From a gamma proteobacterium symbiont of Taylorina sp. (GTDB lineage Bacteria > Pseudomonadota > Gammaproteobacteria > GRL18), in NCBI GenBank assembly GCA_025655455.1, contig JAHXIV010000002.1, positions 46,400 through 110,399 of the forward strand: a stretch of DNA of 64,000 nt, written 5' to 3'. The notes beneath the pieces are model-generated. The model did not search any database, had not been told where the DNA came from, and saw only the letters and a program-made list of their open reading frames with translations. The position numbers and the translations under genes were made by a program. Below, piece after piece: positions 1-11,642 of this stretch. Positions within the stretch are counted from its first letter, which is position 1. Every line of letters starts with the position of its first letter.

Positions 1-1470
1 GATGGAACTGATCTTATTGCTATTGGTCGATTGATCCATTTAGCAGGATTGTTAGGAAGGAAGGTGATGATTTCATCAGCCACCATTCCACCTGATTTAG
101 CCGTGGGTTACTTTAATGTCTATCAAGCAGGTTGGACAGTTTTTGCTAAAATGCGTGACAAACAAACGTCTATTGGTTGTGCCTGGATTGATGAATTTGT
201 GACTAAAGTTAAATCCATTGCTGATAAAGAAAATTATCTTAAGCAACATAATAAATTTATTAGTAAGCGTATTAATAAACTATCTCAACAACCTGCAAAG
301 AGAAAAGCCTATATAGCACAGTGCAGTACCAATGAAAATAAGTATTTTGGAGCAATACAAAAGGCAATTATTCAGTTACATCAACATCATTATTTTACTG
401 ATCCAAAAACAAACAAAACAATAAGCCTCGGTGTGGTAAGGATAGCCAATGTTGATCCTTGCATTGAGCTGACGAAATATTTACTAAATACTGAGTATCT
501 AGTAAAGAATGGTTTACCCAAAGATACAGTAATTAAAACAATGGCTTATCACTCACGCCAAATTTTACTTATGCGCCATAGTCAAGAAAAGTATTTAGAT
601 AAAATTTTAAAGCGAAATAATGGTGATGAACATATTTTAAATGATGAAATAATTAGAAGTCATATTGATAATACCCAAGCCAAAAATATTATTTTTGTTT
701 TAGTTGCAACACCTGTAGAAGAAGTTGGACGAGATCATGATTTTGATTGGGCGGTTATAGAGCCATCATCTTATCGCTCTTTTATTCAGCTGGCAGGACG
801 GGTATTAAGACACCGAGATAAAGAAGTCATAGAACCCAATATTGCCATTATGAAATATAACTATCGAGCCTTAAAGACAAAAGGTGAAAAGGTGGCTTTT
901 AGGTGGCCTGGTTATCAAAGAACTGAGGATGATTTAAGCAGCTATGATATTGAAAAAATAGTGGATACTGATGAGCTTAGATGCAGGCTTGATGCAACAA
1001 ATCGTATTCAAAAAAATAACACATCAGAACTGGCTGGTCTTGAACATAAAGTTATTCATGAATTATTAACAAACTACGATAGCAAAGGGGCTGAATCCAT
1101 GCAGGGCTGGATCGAAGGATGTTGGTGGATGACTGGCGTACCGCAAAAATTTGTACGGTTCAGAAATAGAACAGGTGATGATTTAACTTTATATTTAACA
1201 CTGGATTATGGTTTTGTTGAAAAAAATGATGAAGGTAAATTTGTTCCCAGAGGAAAAGATAATATTACCATTGAAGAGTTAACTAATAAAGAAATGCAAA
1301 ATTTATGGTTTAAACGGGATTACAAGGTTTTATTAACTAAGCAAACTATTGATAATGACATTGGTAAAACTGCATTGATATATGGTGAGATAAATTTACC
1401 GTTATATAACAAGCCACTAGATAATCAACAATTTATTTATAATGATCAACTAGGGCTTGCTAATGGTTAG
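1..1470 (+). CDS. cas3: CRISPR-associated helicase-nuclease Cas3 (type I-F Cas2-3), C-terminal part
   Basis: The frame is open from base 1, so the gene is cut by the window edge and 489 codons remain. What is seen is the second half of the helicase: ISSATIPP near the start, VATPVEEVGRDHDFDW, and the motif VI sequence QLAGRVLRHR at about residues 253-262, followed by the Cas3 C-terminal region. In type I-F systems Cas3 is fused to Cas2 and degrades DNA bound by the Csy complex; the Cas2 and HD parts would lie upstream, outside the window. csy1 to csy4 follow on the same strand. The TAG stop at 1468-1470 lies inside an antisense CRISPR-like repeat, which is unusual. Confidence in the family is high. 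Confidence 0.93.
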   Translation, partial: DGTDLIAIGRLIHLAGLLGRKVMISSATIPPDLAVGYFNVYQAGWTVFAKMRDKQTSIGCAWIDEFVTKVKSIADKENYLKQHNKFISKRINKLSQQPAKRKAYIAQCSTNENKYFGAIQKAIIQLHQHHYFTDPKTNKTISLGVVRIANVDPCIELTKYLLNTEYLVKNGLPKDTVIKTMAYHSRQILLMRHSQEKYLDKILKRNNGDEHILNDEIIRSHIDNTQAKNIIFVLVATPVEEVGRDHDFDWAVIEPSSYRSFIQLAGRVLRHRDKEVIEPNIAIMKYNYRALKTKGEKVAFRWPGYQRTEDDLSSYDIEKIVDTDELRCRLDATNRIQKNNTSELAGLEHKVIHELLTNYDSKGAESMQGWIEGCWWMTGVPQKFVRFRNRTGDDLTLYLTLDYGFVEKNDEGKFVPRGKDNITIEELTNKEMQNLWFKRDYKVLLTKQTIDNDIGKTALIYGEINLPLYNKPLDNQQFIYNDQLGLANG

Positions 1471-1491: not shown

Positions 1492-1541
1492 GTTAAATTT
1501 ATAAATTCAATAATAAATTTTCTAAGCTACTTTTCAGTAGT
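1464..1541 (-). ncRNA. Predicted crRNA-like regulatory RNA (repeat, 27-nt spacer, repeat)
   Basis: Read on the minus strand, a degenerate repeat (1545-1519), a 27-nt pseudo-spacer (1518-1492) and a second repeat (1491-1464) follow one another exactly as in a one-spacer CRISPR array. Cas6f would cut 3' of each hairpin and release CTTAGAAA + 27 nt + a 3' hairpin, the layout of a mature type I-F crRNA. Its promoter is predicted at 1576-1548, placing the start near 1541, just before the first hairpin. The spacer partly matches the csy promoter region. The layout resembles the degenerate mini-CRISPR RNAs (CreR/CreA type) known to steer Cascade to cas or toxin promoters. Transcription and function are inferred. 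Confidence 0.75.
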
Positions 1542-1545
1542 AAAT
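1519..1545 (-). repeat. Degenerate CRISPR pseudo-repeat 1 (5' repeat of the mini-CRISPR)
   Basis: The minus-strand sequence is 27 nt, one base shorter in the loop than the array repeat. It keeps TTTACT and the complete 3' handle CTTAGAAA. The hairpin stem changed from CTGCC/GGCAG to CTACT/AGTAG, two paired substitutions that keep all five base pairs. The loop is GAAA-like instead of GTACA. Confidence 0.85.
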
Positions 1546-1547
1546 AT

Positions 1548-1576
1548 ATTATACAATTTATAAATTTTAAATTCAA
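1548..1576 (-). promoter_or_regulatory. Predicted promoter of the crRNA-like RNA
   Basis: On the minus strand a -35 box TTGAAT (1576-1571) and a -10 box TATAAT (1553-1548) are separated by 17 bp. Transcription would start near 1541, just ahead of the pseudo-repeat hairpin. The -35 box lies inside the site matched by the RNA's own spacer, which suggests self-repression. The region is AT-rich, so chance -10 boxes are common; the exact spacing raises confidence. Confidence 0.55.
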
Positions 1577-1586
1577 TATTAAATGG
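1558..1586 (-). promoter_or_regulatory. Predicted Csy-complex binding site (partial protospacer with CC PAM)
   Basis: On the minus strand, CC (1586-1585) is followed by a sequence matching the pseudo-spacer at 16 of its first 17 positions and 21 of 27 overall. Mismatches fall at 6, 18, 21, 24, 25 and 27. Positions 6, 18 and 24 are bases that type I complexes flip out and do not read. CC directly 5' of the protospacer is the known type I-F PAM. The PAM abuts the -35 box of the csy promoter at 1587. The incomplete distal match would favour binding over Cas3 recruitment. Confidence 0.75.
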
Positions 1587-1615
1587 TTGATATGTTTTTA
1601 GCTTTGCTATATAAT
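1587..1615 (+). promoter_or_regulatory. Predicted sigma-70 promoter of the csy operon
   Basis: TTGATA (1587-1592), a 17-bp spacer and a perfect TATAAT (1610-1615) form a near-consensus promoter. The start point would be near 1622, giving a leader of about 157 nt before csy1. It is the best promoter in the cas3-csy1 gap and would allow csy1-4 to be expressed apart from cas3. Confidence 0.7.
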
Positions 1616-1778
1616 TTGCTTTGTAAGTTGAAGGCACTTGTTTTCTCGTTTTAAACAACACTACAAAAAAAACTTATTGGATGATGCACCTAGTATGTGT
1701 AATTAGTCATTAGAGAGGGACTGTGTATTCTTGGCGGAGACACAGCTTAATCTTAATATTATTTTGAGGACTATCAAA

Positions 1779-3026
1779 ATGTTAGATATAGCGATAATAG
1801 AATTTTTGGAAAATAAAAAGCAAGATTTTCTAAAGAAAAAGATTAAACCAAATACCAGCGAAGAAGATAAATTACTCTTTACTCAAAAAGCTAATGAAAA
1901 GTTTTTGCTAGAAAACTGGCTTATTGGTGCCTCATCAAGAGCCAAGCAATTATCCTTAACCTCTCATCCAGCCAAATTTATCCATCCCAATGCAAAAGCC
2001 AGTAGTATTATTGCTCATTTACCAAAAAAAAATGATGGTTTATTACGATCAGGGAATGTTGATGTTGATTTGGATATCTTTGGCAATGCTGCGGCATTGG
2101 ATGTAGAAAAGTTTTTACGCTTAAAATTATTAGATAATCAAACTATTCTTCAACACATCGAGCAGGAATCAGATCTAATCAAGGAACAATTTCACTCTAT
2201 AAAACAGTCGTTTACACAAATTAAAGAAGGTTTTTTATTAATTAAAAAATCAGATTTGAATCAAACCAGTGGAAAATTAAAACAAGTTTATTTTCCAGTT
2301 AGTGATGATTACCATTTGTTATCAATATTAATACCTTCAGGAATCATTTATAAACTTAAACATAAGATTAATCAATTAAGGTTTTCAGAAGAGAACAAAA
2401 TACTACGTGAAGAATTAAAAAAATCTGCACCCAATCAAATTACTGGAAAAATTAATGAAATTTTTGATTTAACTTCAATTGGTTATGGTGGAACAAAGCC
2501 ACAAAATATAAGCACACTCAATAATCAAAATGGTGGAGTTAGCATTCTACTCTCGTCCATGCCACCAAAGTTATCAAAACGGAAAATTCAACCACCTAAA
2601 CATGATTTTTTTAATGACTGTTTGTGGGATAACTTATTTGAACAAGACTTTACAAACTTTCATCAAATACTAGTCCACAGAAAAAACAATATAAATATTC
2701 GAGATAAACGTGATGATATTGTTATTAATTCAATAACAAAGGTTAAACGACTTGTTGATCAAATAAGATCCATTGGCTTTTGGTCAGACAGTGATACATA
2801 CATGAACTTGGATCGCTGGCAAAAAATTTGGCTGGACGAACAATATGCAAATATTAGAGAAGATATAAAACAAAATCTTGATTATCAAATAAAAGCTCAA
2901 AGCTATTTTGCAAATTGGTTTATTGGTCATTATAAACAAGCAATAAAGAAAAATAAATTACTCGGGGATGATGATATTGGACATATTAAAGATGTATTAA
3001 AACAAGAACAGGAGTTGTTGAAATGA
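1779..3026 (+). CDS. csy1: Type I-F Cascade large subunit Csy1 (Cas8f)
   Basis: This protein of 415 aa is the large subunit of the type I-F surveillance complex; with Csy2 it holds the crRNA 5' handle and helps read the PAM. It carries the family motif GGTKPQNIS followed by LNNQNGG about two thirds along, and the N-terminal FIHPNAKAS region. The reading frame extends upstream to 1731, but ATG 1779 is preferred: GAGGA sits 8 nt upstream and the resulting N-terminus (MLDIAIIEFL) aligns with known Csy1 starts. The stop overlaps the csy2 start (ATGA at 3023), indicating coupled translation. The length is close to the usual ~430 aa. Confidence 0.92.
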   Translation: MLDIAIIEFLENKKQDFLKKKIKPNTSEEDKLLFTQKANEKFLLENWLIGASSRAKQLSLTSHPAKFIHPNAKASSIIAHLPKKNDGLLRSGNVDVDLDIFGNAAALDVEKFLRLKLLDNQTILQHIEQESDLIKEQFHSIKQSFTQIKEGFLLIKKSDLNQTSGKLKQVYFPVSDDYHLLSILIPSGIIYKLKHKINQLRFSEENKILREELKKSAPNQITGKINEIFDLTSIGYGGTKPQNISTLNNQNGGVSILLSSMPPKLSKRKIQPPKHDFFNDCLWDNLFEQDFTNFHQILVHRKNNINIRDKRDDIVINSITKVKRLVDQIRSIGFWSDSDTYMNLDRWQKIWLDEQYANIREDIKQNLDYQIKAQSYFANWFIGHYKQAIKKNKLLGDDDIGHIKDVLKQEQELLK

Positions 3027-11614: not shown

Positions 11615-11642
11615 GTTTACTGCCGGACAGGCAGCTTAGAAA
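11615..11642 (+). repeat. Orphan type I-F CRISPR repeat
   Basis: A complete 28-bp repeat in array orientation with one change from consensus, GGACAG in place of GTACAG, the same change carried by the array's terminal repeat at 9927. No second repeat lies within a spacer length on either side. It is probably a stranded piece of a once longer array. Confidence 0.9.

What the first reader, a model, noticed from the sequence alone, without database searches (positions are those of the whole stretch)
1558..1586. The pseudo-spacer targets its own cas promoter region with a correct PAM
CC, the type I-F PAM, is followed by 16/17 matches to the pseudo-spacer seed side; the only seed-side mismatch is at position 6, which type I complexes do not read, and two more mismatches fall at 18 and 24, also flipped positions. 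The PAM abuts the -35 box of the csy promoter. Match beyond position 20 is poor, so binding without Cas3 cleavage is expected. This predicts autorepression of csy1-4 that is relieved when crRNAs or complexes are scarce or blocked, for example by anti-CRISPR proteins.
Basis: partly seen in the sequence, partly recalled or inferred. Interest (0 to 1): 0.95.

Follow-up and report, generated by a model that had tools for sequence, protein, structure and literature searches.

The report
Self-repressing CRISPR guide beside csy genes
Next to its type I-F CRISPR genes this bacterium carries a one-spacer mini-CRISPR whose guide matches, with a correct PAM, the promoter of those same genes. The layout recurs with different guides in at least 33 other species, so it is very probably a built-in thermostat that turns the CRISPR machinery down.

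Summary
A degenerate repeat–27-nt spacer–truncated repeat lies on the minus strand between cas2/3 and csy1. Its spacer matches 16/17 PAM-proximal bases (21/27 overall) of a site flanked by CC, and that CC abuts the -35 box of the csy promoter. Zero of 20,000 shuffles of the gap reach 16/17, and the site is the only such match in the 4.5-Mb genome. A sister species has the same layout with a different guide and a correspondingly different target. Across 114 I-F loci I found 34 distinct guide/target pairs. In all 34 the best match within the ~1.7-kb region searched, sought without requiring a PAM, is preceded by CC. Mismatches sit at positions 6, 12 and 18 (66% mismatched against 2-8% elsewhere in 1-17), and pairing ends at about 17. 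In 20 of 34 the site lies 29-84 nt from csy1, leaving no evident room for a separate toxin gene. The literature I could read shows CreR for I-B, I-E and V-A, and for I-F only the related CreTA. Extras: the creR promoter overlaps the same site, and the csy leader holds a new covarying two-hairpin RNA.

The parts
1..1470 (+). 3' part of cas2/3 (Cas3f), stop codon 1468-1470
   Evidence: NCBIfam TIGR02562 matches the C-terminal part of the model; cas1 and the rest of cas2/3 lie upstream in the genome
1472..1491 (-). Pseudo-repeat 2: CTTTACTGCCGTACAGGCAG, complete Csy4-type hairpin, cut off just after the hairpin, one base from the cas3 stop
   Evidence: Rfam CRISPR-DR4 1467-1491, 23.1 bits; folds as a hairpin
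1492..1518 (-). Pseudo-spacer (27-nt guide) ATTTATTATTGAATTTATAAATTTAAC; main-array spacers are 32 nt
   Evidence: sister species also has 27 nt
1519..1545 (-). Pseudo-repeat 1: stem rebuilt on both sides (CTACT-GAAA-AGTAG instead of CTGCC...GGCAG), 5' handle CTTAGAAA kept
   Evidence: Rfam CRISPR-DR4 1519-1545, 23.4 bits
1548..1576 (-). Predicted creR promoter TTGAAT-17-TATAAT, overlapping the target site; start site predicted at the pseudo-repeat 1 stem
   Evidence: promoter scan, 10/12
1558..1584 (-). Target (protospacer); 16/17 matches on the PAM side, mismatches 6, 18, 21, 24, 25, 27
1585..1586 (-). CC PAM of type I-F
   Evidence: the best match found without a PAM requirement is CC-flanked in 34/34 loci
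1587..1615 (+). csy promoter TTGATA-17-TATAAT, -35 box directly against the PAM
   Evidence: promoter scan, 11/12; -35 at 0-2 nt from the PAM in 29/34 loci
1674..1764 (+). Structured leader RNA of csy1 (two hairpins), conserved in 6 I-F loci, not in Rfam
   Evidence: covariation; specificity to I-F loci; no Rfam match in this stretch
1779..3026 (+). csy1 (Cas8f)
   Evidence: NCBIfam TIGR02564
3023..3931 (+). csy2 (Cas5f)
   Evidence: NCBIfam TIGR02565
3928..4935 (+). csy3 (Cas7f)
   Evidence: NCBIfam TIGR02566
4935..5486 (+). csy4 (Cas6f), the presumed processing enzyme of the RNA
   Evidence: NCBIfam TIGR02563
6025..9954 (+). Main CRISPR array, source of competing crRNAs

Best explanation
The minus-strand mini-CRISPR makes a crRNA-like RNA (creR): handle CUUAGAAA, 27-nt guide and a Csy4 hairpin. 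It assembles with Csy1-4 and directs the complex to the CC-flanked site just upstream of the csy promoter. Pairing over three 5+1 segments (positions 1-17) is enough to bind and block RNA polymerase at the -35 box. It is too short for the full R-loop that licenses Cas2/3, so the chromosome is not cut. Csy1-4 thus repress their own operon when free complex is plentiful. The operon is released when array crRNAs take up the Csy proteins or when anti-CRISPRs disable them. The creR promoter overlaps the same site, so creR probably limits its own synthesis too. Shown here: anatomy, statistics, conservation, guide/target co-change and promoter geometry. Inferred: expression, processing, binding, repression, lack of cleavage and relief.
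For: Match, PAM and shuffle tests; only match in the genome. Sister species with guide ATGCAATACAGTATTTACATATTAAAC and matching CC-flanked target, mismatches 12, 18, 24, 25, 27. Survey: 34 distinct pairs; own pairs match 94.6% at read positions against 39.8% when swapped, and 0/1122 swapped pairs reach 93%. Mismatch rate 0.66 at 6n against 0.02-0.08 at other phases, whichever phase is left out of the scoring. CC flanks the best match in 34/34 without a PAM requirement. -35 box at 0-2 nt from the PAM in 29/34. PAM to csy1 start 84 nt or less in 20/34. Both pseudo-repeats keep hairpins (fold z -3.0). Complete I-F effector genes and long array. In Acinetobacter I-F a 20-nt guide pairing at 17 positions represses transcription about 7-fold and needs Csy4 (PMC10097628).
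Against: No transcript, binding or reporter data. The 27-nt guide is shorter than the 32 nt of normal crRNAs. The csy leader of about 160 nt leaves room for another product (structured RNA 1674-1764), so a toxin reading cannot be excluded. csy may also be reached by read-through from cas1-cas2/3. A same-genus I-F locus (G009) has a cas3-csy1 gap of only about 28 nt and no mini-CRISPR, so the element is dispensable.
Confidence: 0.82

Rival explanations
1. CreTA: the mini-CRISPR is an antitoxin RNA (CreA) that represses a small toxic RNA (CreT) made from the 1587-1615 promoter, here the structured leader 1674-1764, making the cell addicted to its Csy complex. It could act together with csy repression.
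For: I-F CreTA modules of Acinetobacter sit in the same cas3-csy1 gap with the same guide layout (PMC10097628). The leader holds a conserved covarying RNA with an invariant AUG in six loci. In G203 the same RNA stands behind a second mini-CRISPR/target before cas2/3, so RNA and mini-CRISPR travel together.
Against: Not homologous to the Acinetobacter creT by the RNA model. No Shine-Dalgarno before the 10-codon frame at 1681, and the frame is not conserved. No terminator between leader and csy1, so csy1 shares the promoter. 20/34 loci with the same layout have only a promoter and ribosome site before csy1. In the Acinetobacter case the target is downstream of the start site; here it is upstream of the -35 box.
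Confidence: 0.12
2. Decayed remnant: the mini-CRISPR was once active but is no longer processed or bound in this strain (altered repeat 1, short guide).
For: Repeat 1 scores low against CRISPR-DR4 (23.4 bits); the guide is 27 nt.
Against: The stem of repeat 1 was changed on both sides and keeps pairing. Divergence of repeat 1 is the rule in such modules (PMC9458426, PMC10097628). Both the guide and the read positions of the target are kept in the sister species despite sequence turnover.
Confidence: 0.05
3. Chance match in AT-rich DNA.
For: The gap has 28% G+C.
Against: 0/20,000 gap shuffles; single site in the genome; the same arrangement in 34 independent pairs.
Confidence: 0.005

Closest known systems
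CreR, cas-regulating RNAs (Liu et al. 2023, Cell Host Microbe; read only through reviews PMC13131331, PMC12737573, PMC12948488)
   Same: Mini-CRISPR next to cas genes, partial complementarity to the cas promoter, no separate toxin needed
   Different: A review lists CreR for I-B, I-E and V-A; this is type I-F. Here one site overlaps both the csy and the creR promoter, and the csy leader carries a structured RNA.
CreTA of type I-F in Acinetobacter sp. WCHA45 (PMC10097628)
   Same: cas3-csy1 gap, pseudo-repeats 1 and 2, CC PAM, pairing to position 17 with mismatches at 6, 11, 18, divergent transcription
   Different: WCHA45 has a 33-bp mini-ORF with a Shine-Dalgarno and its target downstream of the start site; here the target is upstream of -35, the guide is 27 nt, and no such mini-ORF is conserved.
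Cas9 tracr-L and SpyCas9 autorepression
   Same: Effector represses its own promoter through a natural short-match guide and is relieved by anti-CRISPRs (PMC13131331; tracr-L from own knowledge)
   Different: Class 2, guide from the tracrRNA; different effector and RNA

Membership tests
CreR (cas-regulating RNA) | Mini-CRISPR with repeat-like flanks that cognate Cas6 could process | tested here: met
   processing itself not testable
CreR (cas-regulating RNA) | Partial, PAM-flanked complementarity to the promoter of a cas operon | tested here: met
CreR (cas-regulating RNA) | Effector-dependent repression of cas transcription, competed by crRNAs and relieved by Acr | not testable with these tools
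   needs reporter strains
CreR (cas-regulating RNA) | No toxin gene under the target promoter | tested here: inconclusive
   met in 20/34 loci by lack of space; in the window a structured RNA of unknown role lies in the leader
CreTA (type VIII toxin-antitoxin) | Guide represses a small RNA toxin with mini-ORF and Shine-Dalgarno | tested here: not met
   no Shine-Dalgarno before 1681, frame not conserved; no match of the leader RNA to Moraxellaceae I-F gaps, two of which hold the known creT
CreTA (type VIII toxin-antitoxin) | Toxicity of the transcript | not testable with these tools
   needs expression assay
Type I-F CRISPR-Cas | cas1, cas2/3, csy1-4, 28-nt repeats, 32-nt spacers | tested here: met
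   csy1-4 and Cas3f, cas1 (by sequence and position), array

The most novel reading that the evidence does not exclude
The unit is both regulator and guard. One Csy-bound site controls its own guide RNA, the csy operon and a structured RNA at the head of the csy transcript that acts in its own right, as a toxin or as a sensor of csy expression. The unit (mini-CRISPR, target promoter, RNA) moves between cas genes as a block, since it also stands before cas2/3 in another genome.
Probability: 0.2. Interest if true: 0.8.

Novelty: new variant of a known kind. Interest (0 to 1): 0.62.

Why it matters
It extends RNA-guided cas autorepression to type I-F, where many anti-CRISPRs are known. It gives 34 natural guide/target pairs that show what a Csy complex needs to bind without cutting: CC plus pairing at positions 1-5, 7-11 and 13-17. 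That rule is directly testable and useful for native CRISPR interference. The structured leader RNA is a second, unexplained layer that goes with some of these units.

Tried and rejected
Chance in AT-rich DNA: rejected. Selection bias from ignoring 6n positions when picking targets: rejected, the same targets and the same periodicity appear with raw scoring and with every other phase left out. Leader as known CreT: no match to Acinetobacter creT-bearing gaps. Leader structure from single-sequence folding: not significant (z 0.09); only covariation shows it. Known Rfam family for the leader: none. Plasmid relatives of the gap: none. A second mini-CRISPR in the window's own cas1-cas2/3 junction: none, the genes overlap. 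The original CreR paper is not in the library, so whether it already lists I-F members could not be checked. creR promoter signal over all loci is weak (mean 8.19 against 7.80, p 0.04), so the shared-operator claim is made for the window and its sister only.

Full report
Observation. The gap between cas2/3 (stop 1468-1470) and csy1 (start 1779) holds, on the minus strand, a degenerate repeat (1545-1519), a 27-nt spacer (1518-1492) and a second repeat cut off right after its hairpin (1491-1472). Rfam's CRISPR-DR4 model finds both pseudo-repeats on that strand, below its gathering score, and the RNA folds into two hairpins with z -3.0. The spacer matches 16/17 and 21/27 bases of 1584-1558, next to CC at 1586-1585, with mismatches at 6, 18, 21, 24, 25 and 27. 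The CC lies directly against TTGATA-17-TATAAT. Shuffled gaps never reach 16/17 in 20,000 trials; shuffled guides do so in 3 of 20,000. In the whole 4.5-Mb genome the CC-seed pattern with up to one mismatch occurs once, here.

Sister species. G004 (MAG N3S-Bin_2, Csy1 78% identical) has the same layout with another guide of the same length, ATGCAATACAGTATTTACATATTAAAC, and a CC-flanked target that differs at 12, 18, 24, 25 and 27 only. Guide and target have therefore changed together. Its second pseudo-repeat keeps the loop of the window's repeat although its own array has drifted. G009, of the same genus, has a gap of only about 28 nt and no such element.

Survey. From 34 I-F loci of the class and 80 named GTDB loci, a repeat-pair detector found 39 candidates, 37 with a CC-flanked target, giving 34 distinct guides. 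Some loci in the two sets are the same genome, so 39/114 is not a prevalence estimate. Mismatch rates are 74%, 59% and 69% at positions 6, 12 and 18, at most 16% at every other position up to 17, and about half beyond 18. The pattern is independent of how targets were picked, and without any PAM requirement the best match within the roughly 1.7-kb region searched around the gap (both strands) is preceded by CC on the minus strand in 34/34. Own pairs match 94.6% at the read positions; swapped pairs 39.8%. This is what pairing in 5+1 segments predicts (structure described in PMC11480323), limited to three segments. A full R-loop is needed to activate the nuclease in the I-F Cas8-HNH relative (PMC11480323), and in canonical I-F Cas3 is recruited only after target binding moves the Cas8 helical bundle. 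The lack of cleavage at a 17-nt match is therefore expected, not shown. A scan of both strands of the whole loci with the same detector gave no further cases apart from one array.

Geometry. The csy -35 box starts 0-2 nt from the PAM in 29/34 loci. The PAM lies 29-84 nt from the csy1 start in 20/34, which leaves only a promoter and a ribosome site; for those loci cas autorepression is the natural reading. In the window and G004 the distance is 191-192 nt. On the minus strand TTGAAT-17-TATAAT (1576-1548) would start creR at the stem of pseudo-repeat 1 and overlaps the target, so the complex would also block its own guide's promoter. Over all loci this second promoter is only weakly supported.

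Leader RNA. The extra leader in the window, G004, L080, L083 and L052 contains two hairpins with 7 of 19 pairs changed on both sides in five sequences (8 in six) and 96-97% of cells paired; shuffles never reach these values and slid structures stay at 52% or less. RNAalifold finds the same helices unprompted. A covariance model finds it in 3 of 369 class genomes, all at I-F cas loci. The third, G203, carries it before cas2/3 behind a second mini-CRISPR with its own CC-flanked target (mismatches 11, 12, 18-20). It is not in Rfam. It does not match Moraxellaceae gaps, two of which hold the published creT mini-ORF ATGTTTAGCACGCAT with a strong Shine-Dalgarno. Its role is open: leader regulator or toxin.

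Known systems. CreR is reported for I-B, I-E and V-A (PMC13131331; described in PMC12737573). CreTA of type I-F in Acinetobacter lies in the same gap with a 20-nt guide mismatched at 6, 11 and 18, represses transcription about 7-fold and needs Csy4 (PMC10097628), but its target is downstream of the start site and it controls an RNA toxin. The window's element works like CreR with I-F parts. I file it as a CreR-type variant with the functional criterion untested. The original CreR paper was not available, so earlier listing of I-F members cannot be excluded.

Noticed in passing
window 1674-1764 (+); also L078, L080, L083, L052, L160: New structured RNA element (two covarying hairpins, invariant TGGATG) in the leader of csy1, or of cas2/3 in G203; specific to I-F cas loci, absent from Rfam.
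   Followed up: partly
L160 about 2400-2510 (G203:C1): Second mini-CRISPR between cas1 and cas2/3 with a CC-flanked target before cas2/3, in a genome that also has one before csy1.
   Followed up: partly
L044, L049, L131, leader of csy1: A small protein of about 60 aa (M..KYVKKETxT...) is encoded between the guide target and csy1; one weak sub-threshold Pfam hit only. A candidate guide-controlled small protein.
   Followed up: partly
window 11615-11642 (+): Solitary CRISPR repeat (one change from the array repeat) 1.7 kb beyond the array, with no partner repeat seen.
   Followed up: no
L216, L218, L219, L222, L225, L228 (Moraxellaceae): Same mini-CRISPR/target layout also occurs in I-F loci of the Acinetobacter family; in those read (L216, L218, L222, L225, L228) csy1 starts close to the target, without the published creT.
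   Followed up: partly
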